DNA of 64,000 nt from Zanthoxylum bungeanum (lineage: Eukaryota > Streptophyta > Magnoliopsida > Sapindales > Rutaceae): assembly GCA_019454045.1 (NCBI GenBank), contig SKCR01023800.1, forward strand, positions 1 to 64,000, given 5' to 3'. Made by a program: the position numbers and the translations under genes. The notes under the pieces are model-generated. The model searched no databases. It worked only from the letters and a program-made list of their open reading frames with translations, and had not been told where the DNA came from. Shown here piece after piece: positions 11,261 to 61,933 of the stretch; the stretch's first letter is position 1; the number at the start of each line of letters is the position of its first letter.

Positions 11261-11268
11261 CTGAATAT

Positions 11269-15535: not shown

Positions 15536-16297
15536 GGCGTGAGTTCCACTAGGCTTGTTTTGTTATGATAAATAATTCGATATATATTTAAAAAATAAGC
15601 TAAATCTATTTTCAAAATCCGATGACGAAAGAGGTTTGTCATCCTACTGGTCATGGATAGTCCACAAATGTTAGCCATTTTTTTTTAAAAAATAAGGGAT
15701 TGAGAAATCTAAATATATTTTTAATTTCTTTTTTTTTTTCAAACTTGAGCTCGTGTGGCAAACTTCTTATTTATATACTTGAAAATCAATTCAACTAAAT
15801 TATTGGACAAAAAATTAAAAATAGAGAGGATAAATCGGACTCTATTTATTTTTATGTCCATCAAGACAAAACAACAAATCATCATTATTATAGTGCCCAG
15901 CTTCTTTAACCGTTCGGAGACATATTCTTTGAACAAAACATCCCCCTTTAAAATGAGGGAATTGGGCCCAAATATTGGATCCTTGTTGGGCTTGTATTGG
16001 GATAACTTGAATTAGTTGAAAATATGGCCAACTCTATTCCTAAAACACATTGGACCAATAAACTTACACTATGCTTGCCAAGCCCATAATCGAGTAAGGT
16101 TTATTGGTCTCTAAGTCGTCTCCAAGAACTTCCTATTAACGTTCAGAGAAAATTTTTCCTAAGTCATCAAGTTACAACACTAGTTGGACTTATGAAATTT
16201 TGAGTCATTATAAATTCTCCCCTTTAAAATAATTCATCTTTGAATCAAAATACTTAAAAGTATGAAACATACATTCTTCTGTGAATAGTTGGGGTAT
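15536..16297. other. TE-flanking region with a possible gypsy 3' end (minus sense)
   Basis: No intact gene. Read on the minus strand, 16203-16290 shows a short coding-like stretch (FDSKMNYFKG) followed by the purine run TTTAAAGGGGAGAA. That is the usual look of a Ty3/gypsy polymerase end plus polypurine tract. It may be the continuation of gypsy element B beyond copia A. I could not match the following sequence to the LTR at 45786, so this is tentative. Confidence 0.35.
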
Positions 16298-17493
16298 TGT
16301 TGGACAGTTATGACCCATAGCGTCACTATTTGTACAGATTATGGTGTTGTTTTACAAATTAACTATGTGACAAAGGAGATTGCACTCTTATAATTTTTGA
16401 TTAGATCACCTAGATGTATAAATGATGAGAGGTCCTTATGATTTATTCCTGGATTGAGAATGATAGGAGACCGTATCAGTCCACGAAGGATAAATCATTA
16501 AATATCCCTAATCAGAATATTATCGATAAATACGTAAAAGACTAGTATTGCACTTGTGCGCGTTGTGAGGGCATAACGACATAGTTATCATATATTTGGG
16601 TATTGGATACTCATGCAAGTGTAATAGGAGGTTGTGTTTCACCGATGGTACGGGAAACAGCTTCGCTCTGGATAGACCCCCTCGGAATTCCATTGGCATG
16701 ATTATTTAATTAAATTAGATTTAATTACGACACAACGGATAAATTGTTAATTTGGAATTAACGAACCCGTGCCCGAGATTATTTACGAGTGCATTCGCAT
16801 TTTGAATTCGAGTGCGGCACGCAAGTCAAATCAAGCGTCAAATCATTAATCGCATCAAGCGTCAAATCACTAGTCGTTTCAAACGTCAAATCACTTGTCA
16901 CTTTGAATGATGTGACTTGACAACTTGATTGATTAAGTGATGTGATAAGTTGTCACTTGAGTGATTGATGGGACTTGATTGAAGTGGTTGATGGCTTTAT
17001 TTGTTTGACTTTATTAAAGCCAAATGCTTTTGGTATATGTTTGTAAATCCATTACCAAAAATCACAACACCTTTTTATTCTCTCTTTCCTCCATCTCTCC
17101 TCTCTTTTCTCACATTTTCCTCATGCCCAAGGGGCTCCAAAACCTTCTGTTTTCTGCTGTAAAACCGTGAGCAGTGAGGGGAGAAATGTCTTGATTTTGT
17201 GGCAAAATCGGAGGTGCTAGCACACTACAAAGTCATGCAAAGGTGATAGGAAAGTCTACCCATGAGCCGGGAATCGTTCGGCGAAGCTTGGAGCTTATTC
17301 GAGGAGCTCAAAAATAGAAAATGAAGGGCTGTGAACTGCCACTGCCGTGAGCAGTGAAGATGGGCAGAAAGTTGATTTTGTTCGTCTCCGTGTCGCTCAA
17401 CTGATCGATGTAAGTATTCCGTAACTTCTCGATTGTTATTCACACATGTTTTCATGCTTATTATTGATCTTGGGACCTTAATAGAAACCAACA
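16298..17493 (+). repeat. 5' LTR of copia A
   Basis: 1196 bp, TGTTGG to CCAACA. Compared with the 3' LTR it lacks about 850 bp between CCATTGG and GGCATGATTA near 16690. The join carries a TTGG microhomology, typical of a deletion. It keeps a block at about 16578-16665 that the 3' LTR has lost. Confidence 0.9.
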
Positions 17494-18293
17494 ATGGCAT
17501 CTAGAGCAAGGTTTGAGCATGAAAAGTTTAGGGCTTAAAATTTGGGTAATTTGTATTTGAGCATGATTTGAATGAATTGGATGTTTGAGTATGCTTAATA
17601 AATATTTAATTGAATATTGATTGGATCAATTTCATGAAATTGTGTTTGGAACAAATTTCCCCAAATTCTTAGTGTTGGCCGAATGCTAATAGCCCTAAAG
17701 TCTTGGTGAATTTTTGATTTTTGATTCATTGGATGAGTTAGAATCATTCGGGATGATGATTTAATGTCCATTGTGGAATTAATTGGATTGAATTCGAATC
17801 GGACATAAAATCCCCTCCTTGGCCGAGACTTTAAAGCATGTAATTGGGTTTGATTTTTGATTAAATTGTGTTGGACATGATTTAATGTTAATGAGCATGA
17901 TTAGTTGTGTTAATTGATGTTTTAGAAATGTTAATTGGATAATTAATTGTGTTATACACTTTAGAATTAATTAAATATAAAGTTGGAATTTTTGTGTTTT
18001 TTAATTGGGCCTTAAAATTGGATTTGGGCTTGTTATGTTGGAAATGGGCCTATTGGGCTTTGTTGTACAAAGTTGGCTTTAGGTAAAATTGTTTGGATCC
18101 AATTTGGCCCAAAACCGCTTCCATAAAGCCCAAATGCGACATAATGGACCTTTAAAGTTTAATTGGGCCTAAATTGATTTCTGGGCTTATGGGGTAATTC
18201 CCGGATTGGATTTTGGTTATTCGGTTTGACCCGAGTTGACCAAAAGTCCACACCTTAAGAAATTAATTAAAAGCCCATTGGACTTTAATTGAA

Positions 18294-18501
18294 TTGACGT
18301 TGGACGTTAATTGGGCTTTGAGACCCGTAACGATTAAATTTGGAATTTAAGTCGTAAAAGTTTATAATAAAGTGTAATATTTAATTTGGAATTAAATAGA
18401 GAATTAGAATTGAATGCATATTAAATTGGATTTAATGATGTAGTTAATTTAATTCGAGAATTCGTATTTTGAGTACTTATTCGCAAAACGAGTTTGACTC
18501 G
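18294..18501 (+). repeat. Hairpin series in the leader of copia A
   Basis: Five inverted repeats, each with a 5-base centre: TTGACG-TTGGA-CGTTAA (18294), TTAAAT-TTGGA-ATTTAA (18334), ATTTAAT-TTGGA-ATTAAAT (18379), ATTAAA-TTGGA-TTTAAT (18420) and CGAG-TTTGA-CTCG (18489). Counterparts with changed arms exist in E (56495, 56535) and F (34751, 34792). Confidence 0.85.
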
Positions 18502-19061
18502 AGCAAAATCAAATCGTTGTTGAACATTGGATGATCACTAATTATCAGATTAATTAATTTGATTAGATTGATTGATAACATGCTTGTGTGAATACGTGGT
18601 TGCGATGCATGAATAATATATATCGGATGGATATTAGATGGGTGGGACAATTTTAGAAATTGTTGTAATAAATTTGATTTATTAATTGGACCTGTGTGTC
18701 CAGCCTTATCACCTCCTTATTCTTTGTATTCTATTCTCACCTATTCCCCTCAATGTAAATGAGGTTTCTTTAGAAGTGTAGTGTAACGGGTAGAAGTGAT
18801 ACATGTGCTAGTGGGAGAGAGAAAGATAGAGATTTGATCTAGGATCAATGTGTAAAGTATCCATCTGCATATCATTATTTTTTATTCATATGCGCTTTAT
18901 TATGTGTTTAGAAAGCATGTTTAAGGGTGTATGATGATGAGATCTTAACAAAGATAATAAATTGGTTGCCAATTTGCACTCGAAAAACCCTTCCCAAAAT
19001 ATTAAGCATCTTTCCTTCCATTGAGTGATTCTCACTCAAGATCCGAGACTGGCATTGGCTT

Positions 19062-19440
19062 GTTGGCCAAAGTCAAGGCCTTTGTCCATCGAGGATGTGT
19101 TTGAATCACGAAGGCTTTGTTCCATATTGGTGTCTTGTCCAAGTTGTGGTTTGTTGGCCAAAGTCAAGACCATTTCTTGTCCATAGACATTGATTATGAA
19201 GCTTTCCATGGTCAATGGGTCGCGCTTAACTGGGATCACTAAGTTTGTTGTGCCAAAGCCAAGACTTAGTTGATTCAGAGGAAAAAGGTTAGGTAATACA
19301 TTGGATGTATTGGCATATATAAGATATATGTTTCGGACTTGGATGTCCCCCTACCGAATCTAGGAATTGGATTGGATCCAATTGATTTTAGAGATCTACC
19401 TAGTTAATTATCATACAATTTGTTGGCCAAAGTCAAGATT
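19062..19440 (+). repeat. Regularly spaced GTTGGCCAAAGTCAAG words in leader
   Basis: Near-identical words start at 19062, 19153, 19247 (GTTGTGCCAAAGCCAAG) and 19422, with spacings of 91, 94 and 175. The same four-word layout is kept in E (57332-57710) and, inverted, in F (33672-34050). Each contains or nearly contains the dyad TTGGCCAA. The function is unknown. Confidence 0.8.
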
Positions 19441-19613
19441 GTGTGATATTTAACGGGATCCTAGCCCACTAGGAAACACGGTTTACCGAGTACTCGACAG
19501 AGGGTTAGAGGCTCGCCGAAAAATAGTGGGAGATAAGAATTAAATTTGCAATATTCGTTTAATTACTTGCCATACGCGCTCAAACAAGTATCATTCGTCA
19601 AATAAATTAAATG

Positions 19614-19817
19614 TTAGTTGGACTAATATTTAAAAGTTATTTTAATAAATAGTTGGACTATATTCAAACTATTCATTTATAGTTGATTTTATAATTGGAT
19701 TATAGTAATCAATATAATTGATTTTAATCTATTAAATTATAGTTGATTAAATAGTTGGACTATTGTAATCATTATAATAAATAGTACCGAAATCATTGAT
19801 TAAATAGTTGGACTATT
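19614..19817 (+). repeat. TTGGA hairpins directly upstream of gag, copia A
   Basis: Five inverted repeats, all centred on TTGGA: TTAG/CTAA (19614), ATAG/CTAT (19649), TATAA/TTATA (19690), AATAG/CTATT (19750) and AATAG/CTATT (19803). They end just before the gag remnant. E keeps one at the matching place, TATTAG-TTGGA-CTAATA near 57890. Confidence 0.8.
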
Positions 19818-19835
19818 AAAATCAAGATAAAATTG

Positions 19836-22800
19836 AAAGATTGACATTTAATACATAATCATAGAGAAAATGTATTTAATGGTTTAATTTTCAAAATTGG
19901 GAATAATAAAATTCAGGATGGTCCTAGAAAATAATAAGTTACTTTATTTGATAAAATAACATATTATGCCTCAGCCCGGAGTTAAGCAAATAGTCGAGCA
20001 TAATCTTTGGAAGATTTATGTGATGATAACTTTAGTGCTTAATCCATTAAGCTTGTCGCAGTAGACTCCTTAATTTCTTAATCAGAACTAAGGATTAGAT
20101 CCTTAAAGTACGATAATGAAATTGAAGGATCTTCATAGATCTATTTTAGATTTTAGAAGTACTAAATTGCAATAAATAACTCTTGGAGAGTTAATGACTA
20201 TTCTCAAGAAGATAAAGTCAAAGTTTGCAATTAGGCAAGTAGCGCAAGGCGCACCTTACTTCGATATTCTCTACATGGCCATGGCTTGGCCAAAGGCTAT
20301 TGGAATGTTGAAAAGAGCAAAGACAAAATCATTATAATCTTCTGGGAAGATAAAGGATATATCCTAGAATGTCTGCTTAAATTGTGGCAAAAGGAATCGC
20401 GAAGCGTGACTGCCGTTTGGACAAAGTAGACATGATGGAATTGAAGACGGGCTTGGCTCTGACTTCAAACATGTTTGTCAATATTATGTTCACTACTAGT
20501 ATTAAAATTAGATTTTAAATACTTAGTGTGATACATAGATATGCATTGATATTCACAATCTGTTATGAACAGGAGACTGACTTCAATTGAGATTAATCTG
20601 CGATTTAGAAACGGGACGAAAGTCGCTGTTTTAACCGTAGATACCTAAGTTTAGGAACTACCTTTCGAGTGTGTACCTAAATTTGGAAACTGTTATAATG
20701 TAACTAGTTTGACTAGATACATTATCTCTATATCAGTGTTTGACCCGTTGCGGGTGAACCTTTATATTCTAGAACACTAAAATGTTTTATTATATAAAGA
20801 TGATATTGAGATATACACATTAGATGTGAATAACAGTATTTATATTTTGAATATAAATAAATCTCAAACATATAACATGACAAACAAACAGCTCAAACTG
20901 ATTTGATCAGAAGAAACTATTGGGCATTGTTGTCTGGGACACAATTAAACAAGACTTGTATATCCACACTTTTGAAGAGTGGGTACTCGGACTGTTTTGA
21001 TTCCAATCAAATAAAGTCTATGAATCTAGTTTATAGGGCAAAGTGCCTAAAACACTATTTACTTGGTAAAGTGTAAATGCCATCGATCTGATAGCCTTAG
21101 TTCATAGTGAAGCAAGTGGGCCCATGTCTAACTAGGCTAGATGTAGATATGAATATTTCGTGACCTATACGGATGTGGCATCGCGTTATGGTTATGTGTC
21201 TCTTTTAGAACATAAATCAGAAACTTTTACAGTTTCGACACGAAATAGACAAACAGATCGGCTATAGTATTAAACCGACACGGTAAGACCGTAATGGAAA
21301 ATACTTAAGCAATAAATTTCTAATATACTTGAAAGAGTATAGTATTCTTTCAATGATGACTCCTTTTGGAACACGTCATTTTTGACAGTGTGTTCGAACT
21401 GACTAACCGAATTTTATTAGACATGATAAGGTTAATCATGAGTCGCTCTGAGCTACCTTTTCCTTCAACGGATAAGCATTAACAGTGCAGAACTTATTTA
21501 GAATAAGGTTCCATTAAAATCTGTTTGACAGATTTCATATCAGATATGAACGAGAAAGAAACTGGGTTTCACATTCCTGTATATTTGGGTATGCTAGGAA
21601 TATGTTTGGATGATACCAAACTAAAACCCAAATTGGATAAGTGCCAATTGTAGGTTATCCTAGAGATACCATAAGTATTGTACTTATACATCTCACCAGA
21701 GAACAATCAGATTGTTGCTCACCATGCGGTTTTCCTAAGAGGAATACCGATATGCAGTGGTAAATGGGAGGATAGTAAAACTCGATGAAAATCGGAGCAA
21801 TACTGTTCTAGGCATCGATTCCTAATGGAACATAAATAGTACATCAATGATGAAACTATTACCATTAATCTTCGAATACACAAGAACCGCGTAGATTAGA
21901 GAGATTCAGAAAACAACCTGGGGTATGGGTTTCTGATCTCACCTCATAAAGATGTCTATCTTATTGAGGAATACCAACTGACTACGTATGAGGAAGTGAT
22001 ACAAGGTATCGACTCCTATTATGGCAAAGTGCCATATGAATCCGAAATGAATTCCATGTATATCAAATGTGTTTAGAATACTAGTTGATGTACCGTAAGG
22101 TATTGTGCCTATTGGTACTTATAAGTCTTCAAGAAAGACATACATGGAAGGCAATATACCAACGTATAAAGATAGGCTTTTAACGGAAAGGTATCGTTAT
22201 CAACATTGTGTTGATTACGATTCAACCTTTTAACTGTTGCCACGGTAAATCCATTTGGATAATGCTTGCTAAAGCTGCATTTTTCATTTATGAAATATGA
22301 CATCTTAATGGAAAATCGCTTTCCCAAAAAGGAAACCTTTTGGAGGATGTTTATAATATCCTGTCGATTTTGTCGTACCAAAACTAGCAAACAAGGTTTG
22401 CAGGTTATTCGATCCATGTTTGGATTGAAGCAAGCATTGAGTTCTTGGAATTATCATTTTGATGTAATCATAATGGTGTATGATTTGATTCAAAACGAAT
22501 ATGATTCTTGTGTATATAAGGAGGTTAGTGGGAGCGTACTGACAGTGACTGTCCTATAAATAATGATAATATGTCATTTCTTGGAAATGATATTCCCATA
22601 ATACAATCGGTGAAAGGTTGGCTTTCGAGAAAATTCTTTGAGAAACTCGTACATTGAAAAATGTACATGATCTGGTGTCTCATACGCTTTGAGCATATGG
22701 ATTCACAATCGGGCCAATCCAAGTGATAGTTACTGGATTGATGTTAAGAACATCCATTATTATCCTAGAGAACTAAGGATGTTGTGTTAATCTGTGGAGA

Positions 22801-23260
22801 AGGAGAACTTGAAGTGACTGAGATCACTACTGTAAGTTTCCTAAACCCATAACACGACTATAAGTCGCAAACGGTACTATACAGTTTGAATAACGGTACA
22901 GTGAGCTGCAAATATTCCAAGCAAGATACTGTTATCGAATAAACAATAAATGCGGGTTATTACTGCAGCTGAGGCAGCAATAAAAGCCATCTGGGTCAAT
23001 TATAAATCTAATTAGATTAGATATAGTTCTGTTAGCAGCTGAGCTAGGCGTCAGTACATGCTAAAGAATTAATGGTCTCATCAACGATCCATATACATAC
23101 TTCAATATTCATCTGATTCGTTCGGATCATACATCGTGGCGATGTGATGATCGAATAAATCGCATCAGATGATAATCATGCAAATTCGCTGACGAAAGCC
23201 TTTTCTCAGCAGTTTGAGCCAACCGTACATAGTTCGGGTGTTAGACACTCGAGTGACTGG
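19836..23260 (+). pseudogene. Decayed gag-pol of copia A
   Basis: Too many frameshifts and stops for a long frame, but the copia domains align in order with E and F. A gag piece lies at 19836-20250. The zinc-knuckle region is at about 20385-20415. The integrase zinc-binding region is at about 20915-21010, with the integrase core to about 21600. RT pieces lie at 22010-22640 (the frame at 22266-22559 includes SMFGLKQALSSWN and DSCVYKEVSGS). RNase H remnants are at 22770-23250. Enzyme roles are known from the family (reverse transcription, RNA removal, integration); nothing here can be functional. Confidence 0.8.
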
Positions 23261-23280
23261 CTATAGGCTAAGTGGATTTT

Positions 23281-25217
23281 TATTGGACATTTATGACCCA
23301 TAGCGTCACTATTTGTACAGATCATGGTGTTGCTGTACAAATTAACTATGTGATAAAGGAGATTACACTCTTATCATTTGTGATTAGATCACCTAGATGT
23401 ATAAATGATGAGAGGTCCTTATGATTTGTTCCTGGATTGAGAATGATATGAGACAGTAGCAGTCCACGAAGGATAAATCATTAAATATCCCTAGTCAGAG
23501 TATTATCGAGATTGGACATCGATAAATACGTAAAAGACTAGTATTGCACTTGTGCGCGTTGTGAGGGCATAACGACATTTCGCTCTGGATAGACCCCCTC
23601 GGAATTCCATTGGTAGTATGACTATGTGTCTATGGAAGTCCGAAATCAGGGTAGATGTATTTGGTCTTAACTTGAGACTTGCACCGCTAATACTTGCGAC
23701 AATCAATATTCTTTGGTTGCGGTCATCCAGGGCTTTAACAGGTTCTGTGTATGCCAGTGCTGGGTATATTGAGAATCGTAGTGTGTTGGGTGTGATGTCA
23801 AGACGGAAGTATCACATCAGTCATAGTAGGGATGATGGTCACGTAGGATACGGGACTGGTTCTTTTAAATGTTGCAGCTATCGAGATAAAATGACAAGGT
23901 CAAGTTTATCCGATTATAGAGACTAGTCACCAGACATCCGACATGTGCTTCGTACGGGGCAGACACAATTCCAGCCCCAGGCCTAGCACGTGATCATCCG
24001 ATACTGGATCGAAATACGCAATACTTCGTATACTGCGCCTGAGACAGATCCTTTATTCCTGTAAGGATATTTTCGGAGAATTGGGAAGGCATGACGCTTT
24101 GCTAGAGGCCAACCTTGTCTTGTAAATTGGTAAAACGTAGTACGAGGTACTTACGTGCTTGGATAGTCTGACGGCCGTATTTACTGCCAACATATCCGGG
24201 GATCTCATGGGTCGCTTCCCAAAGATTCACCGATGACGTATGACTCGCACTTAATTAATCTGGGATTAATTAGAAGAGAAAGAAAATTAATATGGGATTA
24301 ATTTCGGAGATATTTTATCTATGATAAAATATCAATTAAATAGAGATAACGATTAATTTGGAATTAATTGGTAAATTAATATATTTGACATATTAAACGA
24401 AATTGGATTTCGACGCGGAATTAAAATTAGATTTTAATTTGGGAAAACGAGTTAATTTAGAATTAATTCGTTAGCGACGTGAATAGTAATTATGTTTGGC
24501 ATGATTATTTAATTAAATTAGATTTAATTACGACGCAACGGATAAATCGTTAATTTGGAATTAACGAACCCGTGCCCGAGATTATTTGCGAGCGCATTCG
24601 CATTTCGAATTCGAGTGCGACACGCAAGTCAAATCAAGCGTCAATCATTAGTCGCATCAAGCGTCAAATTACTAGTCATTTCAAGCATCAAATCACTTGT
24701 CACTTTGAGTGATGTGACTTGACAACTTGATTGATTAAGTGATGTGACAAGTTGTTACTTGAGTGATTTATGGGACTTGATTGAAGTGGTTGATGACTTT
24801 ATTTGTTTGACTTTATTAAAGCCAAATGCTTTTGGTATATGTTTGTAAATCCATTACCAAAAATCACAACACATTTTTATCTCTCTCTTTCCTCCATCTC
24901 TCCTCTCTTTTCTCACCTCTTCCTCACGCCCAAGGGGCTCCTAAACCTTCTGTTTTCTGCTGTAAAATCGTGAGCAGTGAGGGGAGAAATGTCTTGATTT
25001 TGTGGTAAAATCGGAGGTACTAGCACACTACAAAGTCATGCGAAGGTGATAGGGAAGTCTACCCACTGCCGTGAGCAATGAAGATGGGCAGAAAGTTGAT
25101 TTTGTTCATCTCCGCGTCGCTCAACCGATCGATGTAAGTATTCCGCAACTTCTCGATTGTTATTCACACATGTTTTCATGCTTATCATTGATCTTGGGAC
25201 CTTAATAGAAACCAACA
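23281..25217 (+). repeat. 3' LTR of copia A
   Basis: 1937 bp, TATTGG to CCAACA. It lacks about 90 bp present in the 5' LTR between ATAACGACAT and TTCGCTCTGG (near 23576). Near 25062 it also lacks about 80 bp flanked by short repeats. It carries the most complete hairpin ladder of the window (24252-24566). Confidence 0.9.
24252..24566 (+). repeat. Hairpin ladder in the 3' LTR of copia A (11 inverted repeats)
   Basis: Eleven consecutive inverted repeats in 315 bp, each with a 5-base centre. Centres and positions: CTGGG 24260, ATGGG 24292, CTATG 24319, TTGGA 24358, TTTGA 24384, TTGGA 24403, TTAGA 24427, TTAGA 24457, TTTGG 24495, TTAGA 24518, TTGGA 24555. Arms are 5 to 9 bases and differ from one hairpin to the next. 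Seven are perfect; four have a single G-T wobble or mismatch. A shared centre length with unrelated arms is not expected of one simple tandem repeat. Confidence 0.9.
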
Positions 25218-26640
25218 ATATTGGCCTCGCATAGCTTTTTCTGGCTGCCATGTGGATTCTTGTCCTTTGTGGTGCTGTCAAACCACTTCATTGAGGGAAT
25301 CCAATCGAGATCACAACTTCCTTATTTCTCTGTCCGTTATTGCTACTAGATGATCTAGATAAGATAAATCTTGGCGAACATCAATTGCTTAGGGCTCCAA
25401 CACATGAGCTCATCATGCAAGTATTTACGTAACATATATACATGAAACACAAGATATATCCTATCTATGTTGGGTAGAAGCGCCAGCTCATATGCTCTCC
25501 CTCTGCGAAGTATCTGAAACGGCCTAACAGACCTAGGGATAAGCTTATCCCTCTTGCCGAAATCTCATGACTCTCTTAAAAGAAGATACTTTCAAGAACA
25601 CCGAGTCTCTTACCTGAAACTCCAAATCTTTCCTCCGACGATCCGCATAACTTTTCTGGTGACTCTGAACCGTTTTCATCTTTTCTCTAATCAACTTCAC
25701 TTTCTCCACTGCATCCTGTACCAAATCAGGTCCAAGCAACTTTTGTTCCCCAATTTCAAACCATCATATTAGGGATCTGCACTCCCTACCACACAAAGCC
25801 TCGAAAGAAGCCATTTGAATGCTTGTTTGATAACTATTGTTATAAGCAAATTCTATAAATGGAAATTATTGATATCAACTTCCTCTAAAATCAATAGCAC
25901 AGGCTCGTAACATGTCTTCCAGAGTCTGTATGTTCCATTCTGACTGACCATCCCTCTGAGGGTGAAAAGCCTTGGTACAGTGCAGCTGGAAACCCCAAGC
26001 TTCTTGAAATGACTGCCAAAACTTAGAGGTGAACAGAGAGCCTTGATCAAAGATTATTGAGATAGATACACCATACAATGATACTATCTCATCCAGATAG
26101 AGTCTGGTATACGGGGATACTGAGTAATTTATCCTTACTTGAAGGAAGTGTGCAGATGTAGTCAATCTATCCACAATCACCTATATAAAATCATACCCTT
26201 TTGGGGTACGTGGAAGCCCATCCTCAAAATCCATTGTAATCTTCTCCCATTTTCATTCAAGAACATCTAAACTTTGAAGTTTCCTTATTGGCCTCTAGTG
26301 CTTTACTTTAACTTGCTGGCACGTGAGGCATTTTACAACAAACTCCACTACATCCTTCTTCATGCCATCCCACCAATAGATATTCTTAAGATCATGATAT
26401 ATTTTAGCGATCCCAGGATGTATGGTATAGGATGAGGCATTAGGTTTCTCTGACAATGAATGTCTCAACTCTTAGTCTGGGGGAACAAAAATTCTGTGTT
26501 ACTTCCTTAGGAGATTTTCACTGTCTATAAGGTACTCCTCATCTATGCCTTGCTCTAATCTGCCCTTAATCTGCTGGAGTTGAGGGTCCGATTCTTGGGC
26601 AACTCTGATCTCATCCATCGGGGTGGATCATACTTGAATC
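25218..26640 (-). pseudogene. Integrase remnant of gypsy B
   Basis: Read on the minus strand. The zinc-binding H2C2 region is at about 26310-26440 (HPGIAKIYHDLKNIYWWDGM, then CLTCQ). The catalytic core is at 25875-26180 (ISIIFDQGSLFTSKFWQSF, FHPQRDGQSEW). The C-terminal region at 25545-25739 has KSYADRRRKDLEFQ. A chromodomain-like tail (STWQPEKAMRG) at 25220-25270 is cut off by copia A. The core acidic residues D (FDQGS) and E (DGQSEW) are present, but stops at several places break the frame. The family role is insertion of the DNA copy into the genome. Confidence 0.85.
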
Positions 26641-27467: not shown

Positions 27468-29389
27468 TGTTAGTGTTCCTAGAACATTATTAGGATCTAA
27501 TAAGCATGAATAACAATAGATATGATCATTATAAGGTGCGGAATAAACTTACAATGAGTGATAGAGCTTTAAAAATTTTTGAGATTCAAGATCTCCAAGA
27601 TCCAAGCTTTTGGATGATTCCAAGCTTTTGAGTAGTTTCCCTATCACCTTTGTTCACTTCCAAAGTGCTAGTTTTTGTTGATTTGAAAACAAATCAAAGA
27701 GAGAAGAATGAGTATATTTTCGGCCAAGCCAAGAGCTTCTAGGGTTTCAAGTTTTGATTTTGTTAAGTGTTTCAAAAGTTGTAGAGAAGCCTTTTGTCAT
27801 TTACCCTAAAGTGAAACCATTTCACATTTTACCCAAAACTAGGTAGATATTGGTAAATGGTATTCAAAAAGCAAAACAAGGTAGTTGTGTGGTGGGAACA
27901 CCTACCACACTTTGGCTCCAAATATTTGAATCTGAAATTCAAATATCTCTACGGACATTTACGCGGCTCGGTTCCGTTTAATCCGATTAAACGAACCTTC
28001 GTCGCTAAATAATTAAATCTAATTTAATTAAATAACGATACATCGCAAATATATTACGAACGTCGTTCACGAACTAATTCTAAATTAATTCATTAGTTCG
28101 CATTAAAGTCCGACTTTAATCTCGTAATGAAATCCAATCCATTTTAATATATCCGATATATTAATTTTAGCCCATTTGAATAAATTAAATAGAAAAATCA
28201 AATTTAACTATTAAATTTATTTTACCGATTAATTCCAAATTAATCACGTTCTTTCTTTACTGAACACATTTAATCCCGGATTAAATAAAGCCCTTATTAA
28301 TCCCAGATTAATTTTCTCTCTCTAATTAATCCCAGATTAATTCTAATTTAAGTCAACTGTCATCGGTGAATCCTTGGGAAGCGAGCCAAGAGATCTCTGG
28401 ATATGTTGGCAGTAAATCCGGTTATCTGACTATCCGATAAAGTGAGTACCTCGTACTACGTGCTTACCATTTTACAAGACATGGTTGGCTTCTAGCAAAG
28501 CACCGTGCCTACCCAATTCTCCAGAAATATTCTTACTGGAATATATAATCTCTGTCAGGCGTAGAATACCCAGTATCTCGTATTACGATCCAGTATCAGA
28601 TGTCACGTGCTAGGCCTAGGGCTGGAATAGTGTCTGCCCCGTACGAAGCACATATCGGATATCAAAAAACTAGTCTATTTGAATCGGATAATCATGACCT
28701 TGTCACATTATCCCGATGGTTGCAACACAATAGAGAACGAGTTATGAATCCTTGCGTGATCATCATCTCCATATGTCTGGAGTGATACTTCCGTCTTGAC
28801 ATCACATCCAATACACTACGATTCTCGATAAACCCAATAGAGGCGTACACAGAACCTGTTAAAGCCCTGGATGATCAAAACCAAAGTTTACCGATTGTCG
28901 CAAGTATTAGCGATGTAAGTCTCAGGTTAAGACCAAATACATCTACCATGACGCGGACTCCTATAGACACATATACATACTACCAATGGGATTCCGCGGG
29001 GTCTATCCAGAGCGAAGCTGTTTTCTGTACCATCGGTAAAACACAACCTCCTATTGCACTTGCATAAGTATCCTATACTTAAACATATGAGAACTATACC
29101 GTTATGCCCTCACAACGCACACAAGTGCAATACTAGTCTATTCCGCATTATCGATGTCCAGTCTCGATAATACTACGACTAGGGATATTTAATGATTAAA
29201 CCTTTATGGATTGATACTGTCTCATATCAGCTCAATCCAGAACTAATCATATGGACTTTTATCATTTATATATCAAAGTAAATAAATTACGAAATGATAA
29301 AAGGCAATTTCAATACTACATAGTCAATTTTGTACAAAAACACAATGTCTTTTACAAACAGTGACGCTATGGGTCATAATTGTCTAACA
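27468..29389 (-). repeat. 3' LTR of copia F
   Basis: 1922 bp. A purine tract (AAGTGGGAGAT in element sense) adjoins it at 29390-29400. It includes a hairpin ladder at 27975-28342. It keeps a segment around 29000-29035 that the 5' LTR lacks. Confidence 0.95.
27975..28342 (-). repeat. Hairpin ladder in the 3' LTR of copia F
   Basis: At least ten inverted repeats with 5-base centres (plus-strand reading): CGTTTAA-TCCGA-TTAAACG 27975, TAATTAAA-TCTAA-TTTAATTA 28010, GAACTAAT-TCTAA-ATTAATTC 28071 (one wobble), ATTAAAG-TCCGA-CTTTAAT 28102, TTAATATA-TCCGA-TATATTAA 28144, AATTTA-ACTAT-TAAATT 28201, GATTAAT-TCCAA-ATTAATC 28227, TTTAAT-CCCGG-ATTAAA 28269, ATTAAT-CCCAG-ATTAAT 28296, AATTAAT-CCCAG-ATTAATT 28324. 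The 5' LTR repeats the series at 36155-36522. In element sense the centres are TCGGA, TTAGA, TTGGA and CTGGG. Confidence 0.9.
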
Positions 29390-29403
29390 ATCTCCCACTT
29401 AGC

Positions 29404-30015
29404 CTATAGCCAGTCACTCAAGCATCTAACACCTGAACTATGTATGTGCTTTTCAAACTTTTGCTGTGAAATAACTTTCGTCAGCGGGTCTGCAATGTTG
29501 TCATCTGATGCGACCTTCTCGATCTTCACATCGCCACGATGTATGATCTCACGAATCAGATGGAAACGTCGAAGAACATGCTTGGATCGTTGATGAGACC
29601 ATGGTTCCTTAGCCTGCGCTATAGCCCCGTTATTGTCACACAATAATGGAACGGGCTCAGCTGCTAACGGAACTACTCCTAATCCAATTAGGAATTTACG
29701 GATCCAAACTGCCTCTTTTGCTGCTTCAGCTGCAGCAATATACTCCGCTTCTGTTGTTGAATGGGCAATAGTCTCTTGCTTGGAAGATTTCCAGCTTACT
29801 GCTCCGTTGTTGAAACAAAATATGTACCCGGATTGCGACTTAGAGTCGTCTTTATCGGTTTGGAAACTTGCATCGGTATACCCAGTTACCTCAAGTTCTC
29901 CATCTCCATAAATTAAGAAAGCATCCTTAGTTCGTCTAAGATACTTAAGGATGTTCTTAACTGCCATCCAGTGACCATCACCGGGATCGACCTGATAGCG
30001 ACTACACATGCTCAA
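29404..30015 (-). pseudogene. RNase H domain of copia F
   Basis: 203-codon frame with the copia RNase H sequence: VTGYTDASFQTDKDD, HSTTEAEYIAAAEAAKEAVW, CDNNGAIAQA and KHVLRRFHLIRE. The family's acidic residues (D of TDAS, E of EAEY, D of CDNN) are visible. The frame ends at a TGA after SSGVRCLSDWL, just before the purine tract and LTR, so the C-terminus is natural. It is cut from RT by a stop at 30016-30018, where a serine codon of the E copy reads TAG. The role is removal of RNA from the RNA-DNA hybrid. Confidence 0.9.
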
Positions 30016-30021
30016 AGCATA

Positions 30022-31412
30022 CTAGACATCAGGTCGTGTACATATCATGGCATACATGATCGATCCGACTGCCGAGGCGAACGATATCCGACTCATGCTG
30101 TTTCTCTCATCTTGAGTTTTAGGACACATGTCCTTAGATAGAGAGGCCATGTGACACTGGTAACAGTCCCCTCTTGGACTGATCCATGTTGAATCTTTCA
30201 ACACTTTGTCAATGTACGTGCTCTGGGAGAGTCCCAACAGCTTTCTCTATCCCTGTAGATCTTTATTCCTAGAATAAAGGCTGCTTCTCCTAGATCTTTC
30301 ATGGAGAATTTTAATGAAAGCCAAGCTTTCACCGATGTTAACATGGGAATGTCATTGCCCATAAGTAATACATCGTCAACATAAAGGACAATAAATGTCA
30401 GTGCGCTCCCACTAACCTTCTTATATACACAATGATCATCCTCGTTTTGAGTGAAATCATATTCTTTTATGATCTCATCAAAACGTTGGTTCCATGACCG
30501 CGATGCTTGCTTCAGTCCATAAATGGATCGATTTAACTTACAAACCTTATTTGCAAGTCTAGGCACGATAAAACCATCAGGCTGTTGCATATAAACATCC
30601 TCCAAAAGGTTTCTGTTAAGGAAAGCGGTTTTAACGTCCATCTGTCATATCTCGTAATCAAAATATGCAGCAATAGCAAGCATTATCCGAATGGATTTAA
30701 TCATGGCAACGGGTGAGAAAGTTTCATCGTAATCGACACCATGTCATTGACGATACCCCTTCGCTACAAGCCTAGCTTTGTACGTTTGTACGTTGCCTTC
30801 CATGTCGGTCTTCTTCTTGAAGATCCATTTGCATCCAATAGGCTTTACGCCTTCTGGTTCATCAAACAGTGTCCAAACTTGGTTGGTGTACATGGAATCT
30901 ATTTCGGACTTCATGGCCTCTTTCCATAAAGCGGAATCGATATCTTGTATCGCTTCCTCATACGTAGCCGGTTCGTCTTCCTCAATGAGATTAATATCTA
31001 CATGAGGCGAGATCAGAAACCCATACCTCTCAGGTTGGTTCCTGACTCTCTCCGACCTACGCGGTCCTTGTGTAATAGAAGATTGTAGTACAGTCTCATC
31101 CCGGATGGACTGTTCTTGTTCCGTTGAGGATTCTATGCCTGGAACAGTATCACTCCGATTTTCATCGAGTTCTACTTTCTTCCCACTTACCACTGTATTT
31201 AGGAATTCCTTCTCAAGGAAAACCGCATGTAGAGCAACAAATACTTTATTCTCTCGTGGGTGATAGAAGTAATATCCTTTGGTTTCCCTAGGATATCCTA
31301 CGAATAAGCATTTATCCGATTTGGGCTCAAGTTTGGTACCTTCCAAATGTTTGACGTATGCCCAGCATCCCCAAATCTTTAGGAATGAGAAACCCGGTTC
31401 TTTCCTGTCCAT
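30022..31412 (-). pseudogene. Reverse transcriptase of copia F
   Basis: Three frames. 30744-31412 covers the integrase tail and RT start (GCWAYVKHLEGTKLEPKSDK, WKEAMKSEIDSM, GCKWIFKKKTDMEG). 30198-30641 holds the RT palm (MDVKTAFLN, YGLKQASRSWNQRFDE, and the catalytic LYVDDVLLMG). 30022-30237 holds the end (SAVGSIMYAMICTRPDV). The YVDD motif is intact. Breaks: an R-to-stop TGA near 30743, a W-to-stop TGA near 30646 just before MDVKT, and a frame change near 30235. In the family this enzyme copies the element RNA into DNA. Confidence 0.9.
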
Positions 31413-32563
31413 ATCTCATATGGTGTCTGTTGTACAGACTTTGACGGAACCTTATTCAAAATAAGAACTGCACTGTTTAATGCATATCCCCAGAAGGAAA
31501 TAGGTAGCTCAGTGCGACTCATCATAGACCTTACCATGTCCAACAGAGTTCGGTTTCTCCGTTCGGATACACCGTTTAATTGCGGTGTTCCAGGAGGAGT
31601 CCACTGTGAAAGAATACCATATTCTTTCAAGTAATCTAGAAACTCATTGCTCAAGTATTCGCCACCACGGTCCGACCGCAATGTCTTTATACTCTTGCCG
31701 GTCTGTTTTTCAACTTCGTGTCGAAACTCTTTGAATTTCTCAAAAGTTTCCGACTTGTGTCTCATAAGATACACATAATCATAACGCGATGCATCATCCG
31801 TAAAGGTTACGAATTATTCGAATCCACCTCTAGCCTGGCTAGACATGGGCCCACAAACGTCACTATGAACGAGGGCTAACAGTTCGGTGGCGCGTACACC
31901 TTTACCGCTAAAAGGTGATTTAGGCATTTTGCCTAATAAGCAAGATTCGTGGACGTCATATGAATTTGGATCAAATCCGTCCAAGTACCCACTTTTCGAA
32001 AGTGTGGATATGCGAGTCTTGTTAATGTGTCCCAGACGACAGTGCCACATGTAAGTCTCATCTTTGTTACTTAGTTTGAGCCTTTTGTTTGTTACATTAT
32101 ATGTTTGAGATTGATTTATATTCAAAATATAAAGACCATTATTAGCATCAGCTGAACATATCTCAAAATTATCTTTATAAACAAAACACCCGTGTTTCGG
32201 ATACAAAAGTGTACCCGCATTGGTCAAACAAGATACAGAGATAATATTCCTAGTTCGGAATACAAAAGTGTACCCGCATTGGGTCAAACAAGATATAGAG
32301 ATAATATTCCTAGTCAAACTAGGTACATAATAACAGTCCGATAGTTTAAGTACATGCCCCAAAGGCAGTTCTAAAACAAAAGTGCCCACGGCCAAAACAG
32401 CAACATGTGTCCCATTTCCAACACGCAGATCAATCTCTCCTGAAGCCAGTCTCCTGCTAATCTGCAGATCCTGCGCATCAGTACATATATGAGTACCACA
32501 ACCAGAATCAAAAATCCAATTTTTAAAACTAGAAGTAGCCATGTTTATTTCAATAACAAACAT
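31379..32563 (-). pseudogene. Protease and integrase of copia F
   Basis: 31814-32563 contains the aspartic protease (FDSGCGTHICTDAQDLQISR, catalytic D-S-G), then the integrase zinc region (MWHCRLGHINKTR, then ESCLLGKM). There H-E-S-C stands where E has C-E-Y-C, so one metal ligand may be lost. 31379-31774 has the integrase core (TLRSDRGGEYLSNEF, PGTPQLNGVSERRNRTLLDM). A TAA at about 31811-31813 replaces an expected tyrosine. A 58-60 bp tandem duplication at 32198-32315 lengthens the protease-integrase linker. Confidence 0.9.
32198..32315 (-). repeat. Internal tandem duplication in pol of copia F
   Basis: Copies at 32198-32255 and 32256-32315 share ACAAAAGTGTACCCGCATTG and AGAGATAATATTCC. They differ by a few bases and an indel. 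In translation the block RNIIS-SCLT appears twice. The E copy has a single block here, so the duplication arose in F. Confidence 0.9.
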
Positions 32564-32632
32564 ACCTGAGGCCGGTGCCTTGCCCGCCTTTATCTTATTC
32601 TGAAGCGCCTTGTACTCGCGGCAGTCCCGCTT

Positions 32633-33414
32633 CTAGTGACCCCGCTTGCCGCACTGTAGGGAAACATCCTGAGATTTGTCCTTTGGCTTCCCAGAAGCCT
32701 TTGCCTTTTTGGCCTTGCCCCTTTGAATATGCTTATTCTTTTGCACACCTCCAGTTGCCTTGGGCCCAGCCCTAGGTCCATGAGATGTCGATGCAAAGTG
32801 CGCCTCGCGCTTGTTGCCATTTTGAAGCTCATTTTCAGCCTCCTTGAGAGTTAACAGTAACTCTCCAAGAGTATCACTGTTGTTCATCAAATTATAATTT
32901 ATGATAAACTGTCTCCAGAATCGGGGAGAGATTGCAGGATCATATCCACAGTAATCTCTGCCTCAAAGACTATCCCCATGTTGGCCAGCTCATCGATGTC
33001 AGCAATCATCTGAGCCACGTGGGACTCAACAGACATGCCATCTGTCATGCGTGAGCGAAAGAGCTTCTTCACTAACTCGTACCTCTGCATCCTCTTGTTA
33101 GAGCGATGCAGATCTTGCAACCTCACTAACATATTATAAGGATCCAAGTCCCTATTTTGTCTACGAAAGTGCTGAGTCATCGAAGCAAGCATAATGGACT
33201 GAGTTGTGTCACAATCATCGCTGTGAGTCTTCCAAAGCTCCAGCTCAAGTGTCTCATTCGGTCCGGGCTTAGGCCCAAGAGGTCTTTGTAAAGTATACAA
33301 CAACCTCTCTGAACCTAGGACAATCCTAAGGTTCATTTCCCAATCTGCAAAATTCGTGCCCTTGAAGACATTATCTCCCATGATAATGTCGCGGACATTT
33401 CCTTTGCCTGTCAT
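32633..33414 (-). pseudogene. Gag of copia F
   Basis: Starts at 33414 with MTGKGNVRDIIMGDNVFKG. The 32899-33414 frame carries the copia gag core (NFADWEMNLRIVLG, then LHRSNKRMQRYELVKKLF). A frame change near 32895 leads to 32633-32890 (DTLGELLLTLKEAENELQNG), ending in a lysine-rich stretch and the zinc knuckle. The knuckle (CX2CX4HX4C in the family) has Ser for its first Cys. It is cut by TAG at 32633-32635, where the family has Trp after His. The identical stop is in E at 58750. Gag builds the particle and binds the element RNA. Confidence 0.9.
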
Positions 33415-35643
33415 CTTGACTACGATAGTCTAACTATCTAGTCAACGATAATGGGTACAGTCTAACTGTTACATAGAAAAATAAAAATATTAGTCCAACT
33501 AATAAAGTAATATTGACGAAATTATTTGAAAGCGCGTAAAGCTAAGTATCTGAATGAAATTGCAAATTCAATACTAGCCTCCCACTATTTTTTGGCGAGC
33601 CTCTAACCCTCTGTCTAGTACTCGGGAAACCTAGTTCCTAGTGGGCTAGGATCCCGTTAAATAACATACAACCTTGACTTTGGCCAACAAGCTGTATGAA
33701 ACTTAACTAGGTAGATCTCGAAGATCAATTGGATCTCATCCAATTCCTAGATCCGGTAGGTGGACATCCAAGTCCGAACACATATACTTTATATATGCCA
33801 ATATGTCAAACATATTTTCCTAACCTTTTTCCTCTGAATCAACTAAGCCTTGGCTTTGGCACAACAAGCTTAATAATTCCAGTTAAGCGAGACCCGTTGG
33901 CATGGAAAGTTTCGTAATCAATGTCGATGGACAAGAAGTGATCTTGATTTTGGCCAACAAATCACAACTTGGACAAGACACCGATATGTAACAAAACCTT
34001 CATGATTCAAACACATCCGCAATTGACAATGGCCTTGACTTTGGCCAACAAACCAATGCCAACTTTGGATCTTGAATAAGAATCACTCAACGAAGGAAAA
34101 ACGCTTAATATGTTTTTGAGGGTTTTTCGCGTAAATTGGCATCCAATTTATTATCTTTGATTAGGTCTCATCATACACCCTTAAACATGCTTCTAAAACA
34201 TCATAAGGCGCAAAAGTAAATTAATAACGATATGCGGATGGATATTTAAACAGATTGTTCCTAGAACAAATCACTCCATTTCCTCTCCCCGACTAGAACT
34301 ATTCTAACTCCTACCCTTTTACAAAATACAATAAAGAAACCTCATATACATTGAGGAATAGGTGAGAAGAGAATTACAAGGAGTAAGAGATTAAAGGCTG
34401 GACACGCAGGCCCAATTTAATAAATTCTAAACTTATTACAATTTCCAAAATTGCCCTTGCCCTTCTAATATCCATCCGATATACATTATTCATACATCAC
34501 ATTTATGTATTACAATCAAAACATGTATTCACCAATCTAATCCAATTAATTAATCTTTGATTAATGACCATCCAATGTTCAAACAATGATTTGATTTGCG
34601 CGAGTCCAACTCGTTTAAGAATAAATACTTTTGAGTACGTATTCTTGAATTATATCGAACTACAACTTAAATCCAATTTATTTATATTCAATACTAATTC
34701 TAATTTAATTCCAAATTAAATATTTACACTTACATAGTTGCCTTAAAGACTTGGATTCCAAATCCAATCTTGATGGGTCTCAAAGGCCCAATAACATCTA
34801 ATGTCATTTTAATTAAAGTCCAATGGGCTTTTAATTGATTATTAAGGCATGGGCTTTGGCCATAATGGATCAAACCCAAAATGTCAAGGCCCAATAGGAA
34901 TCACCCTATTGCCATCAAATCAATTTAGGCCCAATCAAATTCTTTAAAGGGCCAAGTGATGTATTTGGACTTCATGGAATTGGTTTTGGGCCCAATTGGA
35001 TCCAATCCAAAAGTCCAAAACCAAACTTGGTCAAACCAAGCCCATTAGGCCCAAATACACACTTTTAGCCCAATTCATTTTAAAGGCATATTATCATAAT
35101 TATAATATTCCAAATATCACAATTATTTTAATTAAAGTGTATTAGCCATAATTAATTAATTAAACTCAATATTTCCAAAATATCAATTAACTTAATTAAT
35201 CATGCTTGAACTAATAATTCATGCTTAACATAAAATCAAGCCAAAACACATCATTGCATGCTTGAGACATATTGAAGCCTAAGATCATCATTTCATGCTC
35301 AACATGCACTTTGATTTTAACATGAACATTATTGACATTGATTCTAATCAAATTAAACCAACTATCATCATTTAAACATGCTTCTAAACACATTATTTCA
35401 TGTTACAAAAAACAAAAAACTGCAGTGCAAAGGGCAGTGAGGTTCGGCCAAGCTTAACATTTTTTTTATTTTTTGATTCTTTTGATTTATTTCAAATCTA
35501 ATCATGCATAACTCTAAGTTATCATGTTGTAAACATACTCAAAGCATCAATTTCAAAAAATCATGCTCAAAACATAAAAGCCCCAAATTTTTAGGTTCAA
35601 AAACCCTAGAAATTATCATGCTTAAATTAGGCTCTGATACCAT
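33415..35643 (-). other. 5' leader of copia F
   Basis: The 2.2-kb untranslated leader. It contains the four GTTGGCCAAAGTCAAG-type words (inverted here, about 33672, 33848, 33943 and 34033). It also has hairpins such as TTGGAT-TCCAA-ATCCAA (34751-34767) and TAACA-TCTAA-TGTCA (34792-34806). The primer site for tRNA-iMet is at 35630-35642. No coding frame is supported. Confidence 0.75.
35630..35642 (-). promoter_or_regulatory. Primer-binding site of copia F
   Basis: In element sense TGGTATCAGAGCC, complementary to the 3' end of initiator tRNA-Met, one base from the 5' LTR end (CTAACA). Confidence 0.95.
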
Positions 35644-55663: not shown

Positions 55664-55925
55664 ATGGTATCATGAGCTTATTTGAGCATGAAATTGATTT
55701 AGGGTTCTTAATCTAAAATTTGGGTATTGTTGATTTAAGCATAATTTGATCAAATTGTTTGTTTGAGTATGCTTAGATAATGTTAATTTAGAGTTATGCA
55801 TGATCAATTTGATGAAAAATTAATTGGATTAATTTTCCCCGAAAACATATGCTTGGCCGAATCTTGAAGTGCCCTAAAGTCATGGTAAATTTTATTTTTT
55901 TGACCATTGGATATGTTTAAATGCA

Positions 55926-55927
<2 letters not shown>

Positions 55928-55960
<33 letters not shown>
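55928..55960 (+). repeat. (TA)n microsatellite
   Basis: About 16 TA dinucleotides in the leader of copia E. The aligned place in A has no such run. Confidence 0.9.
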
Positions 55961-55964
<4 letters not shown>

Positions 55965-57160: not shown

Positions 57161-57300
57161 AATTAATTGGTTGCAAATTACGCGAAAAACCCTCAACAAA
57201 TATTAAGCGTTTTCCTTCCATTGAGTGATTAATTAATTGGTTGCCAATTACGCGAAAAACCCTCAACAAATATTAAGCGTTTTCCTTCCATTGAGTGATT
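57161..57300 (+). repeat. 70-bp tandem duplication in the leader of copia E
   Basis: Copies 57161-57230 and 57231-57300 differ at one base (TTGCAAATTA against TTGCCAATTA). A and F have one copy, so it arose in E and is young. Confidence 0.95.
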
Positions 57301-58752: not shown

Positions 58753-58782
58753 AAGCGTGACTGCCGTGAGTATAAGGCGCAC

Positions 58783-61870: not shown

Positions 61871-61933
61871 GCGACATGAACATAGTTCAGATGTTAGATG
61901 CTTGAGTGACTGGCTATAGGCCAAGTGGGAGAT

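What the first reader, a model, noticed from the sequence alone, without database searches (positions are those of the whole stretch)
24252..24566. Ladder of eleven hairpins with fixed 5-base centres in a copia LTR
Seen directly: eleven consecutive inverted repeats in 315 bp, arms 5-9 bases, every centre exactly five bases (TTGGA x3, TTAGA x3, TTTGA, TTTGG, CTGGG, ATGGG, CTATG). Arms are unrelated to each other, so this is not one duplicated unit; only the geometry and centre consensus (roughly YTDGR) repeat. The same series is in the LTRs of E (54831-55146) and F (27975-28342, 36155-36522). AT-rich DNA gives chance palindromes, but not a constant centre length and consensus. Inference: a multivalent RNA pentaloop module (for Gag binding, packaging, nuclear retention or small-RNA production), or dyad DNA sites. 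I do not know of a described equivalent.
Basis: partly seen in the sequence, partly recalled or inferred. Interest (0 to 1): 0.92.

Follow-up and report, generated by a model that had tools for sequence, protein, structure and literature searches.

The report
Retrotransposon RNA studded with matching hairpins
A plant jumping gene carries dozens of small RNA hairpins that share one three-letter loop pattern, kept by evolution through much of its RNA including protein-coding parts, which suggests a repeated docking site for a protein, perhaps its own shell protein.

Summary
The ladder is real and beyond chance. It is only the densest part of something larger. Three related Ty1/copia elements in the window (D, E, F) carry 130 perfect hairpins (stem 5 or more) with loop Y-[G/A/U]-G on the sense strand, in leader, gag and pol as well as LTR. 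Shuffles give almost none; the mirror loop is nearly absent. With protein and codon usage fixed, coding hairpins number 14 and 13 against about 1. Internal stems covary, and third codon positions inside them change four to five times less between E and F. Three further inner stretches show it; three other copia sequences show little or none. So this is a selected, strand-specific RNA feature of one copia lineage. Most likely it supplies many binding sites for one RNA-binding protein, Gag being my best candidate (dispersed packaging signals). Binding is untested. I found no described equivalent; only three literature searches were answered.

The parts
24251..24273 (+). ladder hairpin 1, loop TGG, stem 10 (GU allowed)
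24284..24304 (+). ladder hairpin 2, stem 8, true 5-base loop ATGGG
24309..24333 (+). ladder hairpin 3, stem 11, loop TAT (TGG in E, CGG/TGG in F)
24350..24370 (+). ladder hairpin 4, stem 9, loop TGG
24376..24396 (+). ladder hairpin 5, imperfect in D; perfect 9-bp stem with loop CGG in F
24398..24412 (+). ladder hairpin 6, stem 6, loop TGG; outer pair C-G in D, T-A in E
24418..24440 (+). ladder hairpin 7, stem 10, loop TAG; an A-T pair here is G-C in F
24446..24472 (+). ladder hairpin 8, stem 12 with GU, loop TAG
24485..24509 (+). ladder hairpin 9, stem 11 with GU, loop TTG; least conserved of the nine rungs counted (77.3% of cells paired)
24510..24530 (+). ladder hairpin 10, stem 9, loop TAG
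24547..24567 (+). ladder hairpin 11, stem 9, loop TGG; two pairs swapped in F
16290..25219 (+). element D (copia), 52 Y-D-G hairpins with stem>=5; LTRs about 16290-17495 (internally deleted) and 23280-25219
27468..37543 (-). element F (copia), LTRs 27468-29390 and 35644-37543; 43 Y-D-G hairpins counted with one LTR
53788..62770 (+). element E (copia), 35 Y-D-G hairpins counted to 61933; 3' LTR similarity ends at 62770, before its ladder
27975..28342 (-). ladder of F 3' LTR
36155..36522 (-). ladder of F 5' LTR
54831..55146 (+). ladder of E 5' LTR
59687..59709 (+). coding hairpin (stem 10, loop TGG) in the integrase region of E; same in F 31607-31629; D has it with loop TAG
58686..58700 (+). coding hairpin in gag upstream of the zinc-knuckle sequence: E GCCTTC-TGG-GAAGGC, F GGCTTC-TGG-GAAGCC; the peptide reads KPSGKA in E and KASGKP in F
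23232..23254 (+). coding hairpin at the end of pol of D, loop TAG; F 29438 (minus) keeps pairing through G-C to A-T and G-U changes

Best explanation
Shown: the sense strand of this copia lineage carries 35-52 short hairpins per window element (stem>=5) with triloop Y-[G/A/U]-G (TGG, TAG, TTG, some CGG and CAG), mostly closed by a pyrimidine-purine pair, in leader, gag and pol and packed into a ladder in the LTR; stems, and in the internal region loop bases 1 and 3, are kept as an RNA structure would be. Inferred: so many copies of one loop on differing stems are repeated binding sites for one RNA-binding protein. The most likely partner is the element's own Gag, whose zinc-knuckle part would read the loop G, so that many weak sites together pick the genomic RNA for packing into virus-like particles. 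The ladder would be the densest site: upstream of the presumed promoter in the 5' LTR, but inside the 3' untranslated part of the RNA in the 3' LTR (my reading; start site unknown).
For: Excess: TNG triloops, stem>=6, internal regions: D 29 (with its 5' LTR), F 21, E 18; shuffle means 0.18, 0.13, 0.20, max 2 of 60; two non-element stretches of 16.0 and 15.0 kb have 0 and 1. Strand: TNG 94 of 2111 triplets, CNA 2 of 1463, all loops other than YNG 32 of 25092. Closing pair Y-R in 109 of 130. Synonymous shuffles of coding frames, stem>=5: F 14 against 0.99 (max 4 of 500), E 13 against 0.98 (max 5). Third codon positions in stems: F vs E 3 of 63 changed, outside 256 of 1148 (Fisher P 0.0004). Double compensatory pairs, internal, stem>=6: D-F 15 against 3.6 expected, D-E 9 against 3.3, E-F 5 against 1.3. 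At stem>=5, over six directions, motif hairpins have 64 such cells of 1005, other triloop hairpins 12 of 528 (my sums). Internal loop changes at positions 1,2,3 with stem kept: E-D 2,10,0 of 19; F-D 1,10,1 of 24; E-F 1,5,0 of 20; F-E 1,5,2 of 26. 49 sites shared by at least two of D, E, F, 29 by all three (a few adjacent centres count twice). Further copies, stem>=5, sense/antisense: L063 42/1, L064 40/1, L068 50/2. In 240-nt RNA context 88 of 130 have mean pair probability above 0.5 (other triloop stems 37 of 73). Analogues: human parechovirus has about 60 specific coat-protein contacts by short RNA motifs (PMC5431903, abstract); Ty3 packaging needs both UTRs and POL, signals not precisely defined (PMC11381356, passages).
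Against: No binding, packaging or expression data. The first ~1 kb of the LTR and the part after the ladder hold almost none, which packaging does not explain. In the 60 ladder copies loop position 3 changes at 5.3% and 5.7%, position 1 at 1.3% and 5.7%, spacers at 4.2% and 4.1%, so there loop G is not slower than spacers; TCG loops also occur (13 and 26). Among D, E and F the LTR loops change at position 1 (mostly T/C) about as often as at 2 in some directions (e.g. E-F3 3,3,0 of 7), and from D internal loops are less constant (D-E 6,12,6 of 21). LTR double compensations do not exceed expectation for D-E (1 against 1.1; reverse 2 against 1.8). G-U against A-C changes: 54:12 in D copies but 20:18 in E copies, and non-motif hairpins show G-U excess too. 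AAG and GAG loops are mildly raised (18 per 1000 each, stem>=5). Triloops of any sequence exceed shuffles in non-element 1-16000 (19, mean 7.7, max 16), and other loops do so in F coding (12 against 5.04). In 40 kb of sampled genome, 42 motif hairpins (stem>=6, both strands) lie in 11.3 kb similar to D/E/F, but 19 in the other 28.7 kb, five clustered in L066 2811-4462, unexplained. Pfam sees ordinary copia Gag in F and E, and in both the zinc-knuckle stretch is interrupted by a stop at the same place; L068 has an uninterrupted one.
Confidence: 0.4

Rival explanations
1. The hairpins are sites for a host RNA-binding protein (or serve another step such as export, retention, stability or translation) rather than Gag.
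For: All structural and selective evidence fits any single sense-strand RNA reader. In E and F the Gag zinc-knuckle stretch is interrupted, though that may only mean old copies.
Against: Presence in coding sequence, with linked residue changes in gag (KASGKP/KPSGKA), suggests a benefit to the element. Another copia in the same genome (L066, 0 sense, 2 antisense at stem>=5 in 4.1 kb) lacks them, so the host protein would serve one lineage only.
Confidence: 0.3
2. The hairpins act through small RNAs: substrates for, or shields against, dicing and RNA-directed DNA methylation, as proposed for maize Sirevirus palindromes.
For: Maize Sirevirus LTR palindromes are small-RNA mapping hotspots (PMC5311732, PMC10760457, passages seen).
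Against: Stems are short, and a fixed loop with variable stems is not what dicing needs. Internal loop positions 1 and 3 are constrained. No small-RNA data here.
Confidence: 0.12
3. A mutational process makes the hairpins, for example template switching during reverse transcription that perfects imperfect palindromes.
For: Would give matching arms and apparent compensatory pairs without selection.
Against: Does not explain one loop on one strand, internal loop constraint, 29 sites shared by D, E and F, slow third codon positions in stems, or near absence from the rest of the LTR, which is copied by the same enzyme. After insertion F5 and F3 show 0 compensatory changes in stems, but only 3 changed cells in all.
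Confidence: 0.05
4. DNA dyad sites for a dimeric transcription factor in the LTR promoter, like Sirevirus repeated motifs.
For: The ladder lies upstream of a TATA-like and pyrimidine-rich region near the LTR end (sequence; the reading is mine).
Against: Centre is strand-asymmetric, arms differ between rungs, most hairpins are outside the LTR ladder.
Confidence: 0.04

Closest known systems
Palindromic repeated motifs in Sirevirus LTRs (PMC2829016; outline with abstract, results section and section 19 read)
   Same: Many palindromes clustered in the LTR of a plant Ty1/copia element; proposed regulatory role. The AT/TG junction at the 3' LTR is the same.
   Different: Sirevirus boxes are similar copies of one box per element (66-100% identity), all but one with a CGG-CCG core, in LTRs and near env. 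Here arms differ, the loop is the constant part, hairpins run through gag-pol, and the Sirevirus polypurine tract, primer-site junction and linker are absent.
Dispersed RNA packaging signals of single-stranded RNA viruses, e.g. human parechovirus (PMC5431903, abstract seen; other viral cases are recalled)
   Same: Dozens of short RNA motifs with a shared recognition feature along the RNA.
   Different: Here an LTR retrotransposon, near-perfect stems and a very uniform loop; no protein partner has been shown.
Ty3 genomic RNA cis-signals (PMC11381356, passages seen)
   Same: Retroelement RNA whose packaging needs both UTRs and POL.
   Different: The word triloop does not occur in that paper's main text; whether it has a repeated loop motif I did not check further.
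Zinc-knuckle nucleocapsid proteins that bind an exposed loop G (retroviral NC; recalled, not looked up)
   Same: A loop G read by a CCHC knuckle would suit a U-D-G loop.
   Different: Not tested for this Gag.

Membership tests
Ty1/copia LTR retrotransposon | gag and pol domains with integrase before reverse transcriptase | tested here: met
   F: Retrotran_gag_2, then Pol_BBD and gag_pre-integrs, then SH3_retrovirus and RVT_2; rve fragment in E below its cut-off
Ty1/copia LTR retrotransposon | flanking LTRs with iMet primer site and polypurine tract | tested here: met
   LTR pairs; F TGGTATCAGAGC after the 5' LTR (exact string absent in D and E) and AGTGGGAG-AT-TG before the 3' LTR
Sirevirus | multiple AGGGGGAG polypurine tracts | tested here: not met
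   0 AGGGGGAG and 0 AGGGGGAA in D, E, F
Sirevirus | 5' junction ATTGG + TATCAGAGC | tested here: not met
   ATTGGTATCAGAGC (the commoner form) absent in D, E, F
Sirevirus | long linker between pol and 3' LTR | tested here: not met
   F pol frame ends at 29404, LTR ends at 29390
Sirevirus | repeated palindrome with CGG-CCG core | tested here: not met
   CGGNNNCCG 0 in D, E, F (only this one spacing tested); rungs are AT-rich with differing arms
Dispersed packaging signals | many copies of a common recognition motif along the genomic RNA | tested here: met
   130 hairpins in three elements; that they lie in the RNA is inferred, no transcript data
Dispersed packaging signals | motif conserved between relatives under RNA-level selection | tested here: met
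   with the exceptions told in the Against line
Dispersed packaging signals | specific binding by the capsid or Gag protein | not testable with these tools
   needs binding assay
Known Rfam RNA family | match above gathering score | tested here: not met
   0 matches in 15500-64000
DNA dyad transcription-factor sites | no strand preference at the centre | tested here: not met
   TNG 94/2111, CNA 2/1463

The most novel reading that the evidence does not exclude
An LTR retrotransposon has evolved a genome-wide packaging code: Gag reads a Y-D-G triloop, 35-52 such hairpins are written over leader, gag, pol and LTR of each window element, and the code is strong enough to steer codon choice and even linked amino-acid changes in gag.
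Probability: 0.38. Interest if true: 0.93.

Novelty: categorically new. Interest (0 to 1): 0.87.

Why it matters
How plant retrotransposon RNA is chosen for packaging is, as far as I know (recalled), largely unresolved. Here the sequence itself offers a candidate recognition code, uniform enough to be tested with short synthetic RNAs and one purified Gag domain. It would also be a clear case of RNA structure steering codon and amino-acid choice in a transposable element, in a family with thousands of first-look candidates in a 3.96-Gb genome (4485 and 6004 for two ladder queries, only 40 scored each), and it gives a simple motif for screening other elements.

Tried and rejected
Rejected: chance in AT-rich DNA; a simple tandem array (Tandem Repeats Finder finds none in the ladder); Sirevirus membership; deamination of a CNG loop, because it should give CNA as often as TNG; a general property of copia: L001 1 sense hairpin against 0.49; L066 copia 0 sense, 2 antisense in 4.1 kb; L002 5 sense, 2 antisense against 0.82 (max 4 of 100 shuffles), though its coding part alone has 2 sense and 2 antisense against 0.54 (20 of 200 synonymous shuffles reach it), so L002 may have a slight excess. 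L065, fetched as the inside of a presumed E-type element, has no similarity to D, E or F inner regions and no primer site in its first 180 bases, so it counts only as ordinary sequence: 1 hairpin, 0.55 expected.

Dropped before counting: hairpins with an alignment gap in the stem or loop (stem>=6 internal: D-E 8, D-F 8, E-D 4, E-F 3, F-D 3, F-E 2; the same rule). One search also dropped hairpins with two or more pairs lost. In one search some frames overlap, so a hairpin there can count twice, in data and shuffles alike; D frames were not tested. One search mixed strands of the fetched copies and is replaced.

Led nowhere: relatives in viral contigs (none); naming the copia lineage and the plant; G-U against A-C as a strand test. 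Genome searches for F-type ladders and, by protein, for other copia lineages did not complete (and later). Literature: only searches were answered; others failed and 118 met the cap. That I know of no described equivalent rests on three listings and on recall.

Full report
What is there. The stretch 24252-24566 lies in the middle of a ~1.9-kb LTR of a copia element (D, 16290-25219, plus strand). Two relatives are in the window: F (27468-37543, minus strand, LTRs 97.4% alike) and E (53788-62770, plus strand). Eleven hairpins follow one another if G-U pairs are allowed, ten with Watson-Crick pairs only. For stem>=6 and loop 3 or 5 the count is 9; shuffles give 0.54 on average and 4 at most in 300.

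The pattern is wider than the finding. A scan of the whole window for perfect hairpins with stem>=7 gave 99 with loop 3, 38 with loop 4, 17 with loop 5, 8 with loop 6; those with loop T-N-G are concentrated in D, E and F, internal regions included. With stem>=6, T-N-G hairpins number 29 in D (internal region with its 5' LTR), 21 in F and 18 in E; 60 dinucleotide shuffles of each average 0.13-0.20 and never exceed 2; two non-element stretches of 16.0 and 15.0 kb have 0 and 1. Of the LTR pieces outside the ladder, those of D and F have none and each of three E pieces has one (stem>=6, Watson-Crick). Triloops of any sequence are also above shuffles in non-element 1-16000 (19 against a mean of 7.7, max 16), so triloops as such are somewhat common here; the T-N-G loop is what sets the elements apart.

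The loop. In the three elements 16% of all TGG triplets sit on a stem of at least 4 bp (88 of 543), 8.8% on one of at least 6 (48 of 543). TAG (24 of 451), CGG (8 of 169), TTG (22 of 832) and CAG (6 of 227) are also high at stem>=6; all loops other than Y-N-G together give 32 of 25092 (all LTRs counted). The mirror loop C-N-A gives 2 of 1463, so the signal belongs to the sense strand. Of 130 hairpins with stem>=5 and loop Y-[G/A/T]-G (D 52, F 43 with one LTR, E 35 with one LTR) 109 have a pyrimidine-purine pair closing the loop.

Selection on RNA. (a) Coding sequence: exchanging synonymous codons within reading frames leaves about one hairpin where 14 (F) and 13 (E) exist (seven frames of F, nine of E, some overlapping; D not tested because its frames are short and broken). 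Other loops: F 12 against 5.04, E 9 against 6.21. (b) Third codon positions inside stems differ between F and E at 3 of 63 sites against 256 of 1148 outside; E against F 2 of 53 and 236 of 1148; F against D 10 of 58 and 323 of 1032; E against D 6 of 49 and 314 of 983 (Fisher P 0.0004, 0.001, 0.03, 0.002; the four comparisons share data). (c) Both-sided compensatory changes in internal hairpins: D-F 15 against 3.6 expected from substitution rates, D-E 9 against 3.3, E-F 5 against 1.3; reverse directions F-D 12/3.4, E-D 9/2.7, F-E 4/1.4; in the LTR D-E 1/1.1, E-D 2/1.8, D-F3 3/1.5, F3-D 6/2.0, E-F3 3/1.5, F3-E 4/1.3. (d) On the ladder alignment the D-derived structure keeps 90.9% of 374 cells paired and has 10 pairs with change on both sides; slid versions give 25-54% and 0-5. 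(e) Loop: with the stem kept, internal changes at positions 1, 2, 3 are 2,10,0 (E to D, 19 hairpins), 1,5,0 (E to F, 20), 1,10,1 (F to D, 24), 1,5,2 (F to E, 26), but 6,12,6 (D to E, 21) and 6,11,2 (D to F, 19); in the LTR position 1 changes too, mostly T/C: totals over six directions 15, 21, 4 (my sums). (f) In 30 D-type and 30 E-type ladder copies (the window's own copy is one of each 30) stems change half as often as spacers (2.1% against 4.2%; 1.9% against 4.1%; Fisher P about 3e-11 each, copies not independent), loop base 2 most often (9.7%, 14.1%); but loop base 3 changes at 5.3% and 5.7% and base 1 at 1.3% and 5.7%, so in these copies the loop ends are, but for base 1 in D, not slower than spacers. 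These 60 are the loci given out for the 40 best-scored of 4485 and 6004 candidates, the closest relatives, not a random sample.

Examples. Gag: E GCCTTC-TGG-GAAGGC, F GGCTTC-TGG-GAAGCC, D ATCTTC-TGG-GAAGAT; the peptide reads KPSGKA in E and KASGKP in F, so two residues change places as the base pair flips. Leader: D TTAAATT-TGG-AATTTAA, E TTAGATT-TAG-AATCTAA, F TTGGATT-TGG-AATCCAA.

Other copies and controls. Two more D-type copies have 42 and 40 such hairpins (stem>=5) in 5.4 kb of internal sequence, 1 antisense each, about 0.7 expected. Four 10-kb stretches were taken from two contigs that also appear in the hit lists, without regard to where the hits lie. One (L068) holds a related copy; the stretch has 50 sense and 2 antisense hairpins. 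A different copia in L066 has 0 sense and 2 antisense in 4.1 kb. Over the four stretches 42 motif hairpins (stem>=6, both strands) fall in 11.3 kb similar to D, E or F and 19 in the other 28.7 kb; the second number is higher than in the window's non-element parts, and a cluster of five at L066 2811-4462 may belong to a more distant relative, which I did not resolve. Two copia contigs found in bacterial assemblies (L001, L002; 55 and 58% identical in the best integrase segment) show little or none.

Mechanism. Shown: a sense-strand hairpin with fixed loop, repeated and, by the tests above, selected. The zinc-knuckle stretch is interrupted by a stop at the same place in E and F, F also lacks the first cysteine, and it is uninterrupted in the related copy L068. 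That single knuckles like a loop G is recalled knowledge. The transcription start is not known; from the sequence I would place the promoter near the LTR end (TATA-like and pyrimidine-rich stretch), which would put the ladder in U3: outside the RNA at its 5' end, inside it at its 3' end. That is a reading, not a result.

Known relatives. Sirevirus LTR palindromes are the nearest described thing in plant copia elements that I found (PMC2829016); four Sirevirus features were tested and none is met. Works-like comparison: dispersed packaging signals in RNA viruses (PMC5431903, abstract). I rate it categorically new because no known kind passed a full membership test; if Gag binding is shown it would become a new variant of dispersed packaging signals. 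Only three literature searches were answered.

Noticed in passing
L001 (NZ_VCHY01000049.1) and L002 (BMWJ01000027.1): Contigs in a Labilibacter and a Streptomyces assembly carry long copia gag-pol frames (1092 and 1344 aa), very probably eukaryotic contamination.
   Followed up: partly
about 32633 (F, minus strand) and about 58750 (E, plus strand): E and F both have a stop at the same place inside the Gag zinc-knuckle sequence, while the related copy L068 has none there; inherited defect or something regulated is open.
   Followed up: partly
27305-27467 with 37543-38675, against 41479-42775: F lies inside a repeat whose second copy at 41479-42775 lacks it, so the window seems to show a filled and an empty version of the site.
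   Followed up: no
16582-16693: The 5' LTR of D has lost most of the ladder (the last two hairpins remain), while the 3' LTR keeps it.
   Followed up: partly
[quoted passage not shown] E gattgt-TGG-acaatt).
   Followed up: no
24627-24697: Three copies of a 24-base tandem repeat just after the ladder.
   Followed up: no
LTR ends of D, E, F (about 25133, 55578, 35735 minus): A conserved TGTAAGT string close to the LTR end resembles a splice donor; in F the leader from LTR to gag is about 2.2 kb long.
   Followed up: no
23280-24240 and the same part of the LTRs of E and F: The first ~1 kb of the LTR holds a block shared exactly by D, E and F (GTGATGTCAAGACGGAAGTATCAC) yet almost no hairpins; its role is unexplained.
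   Followed up: no
L066 2811-4462, minus strand: Five motif hairpins clustered outside the stretch similar to D, E or F; perhaps a more distant relative.
   Followed up: no
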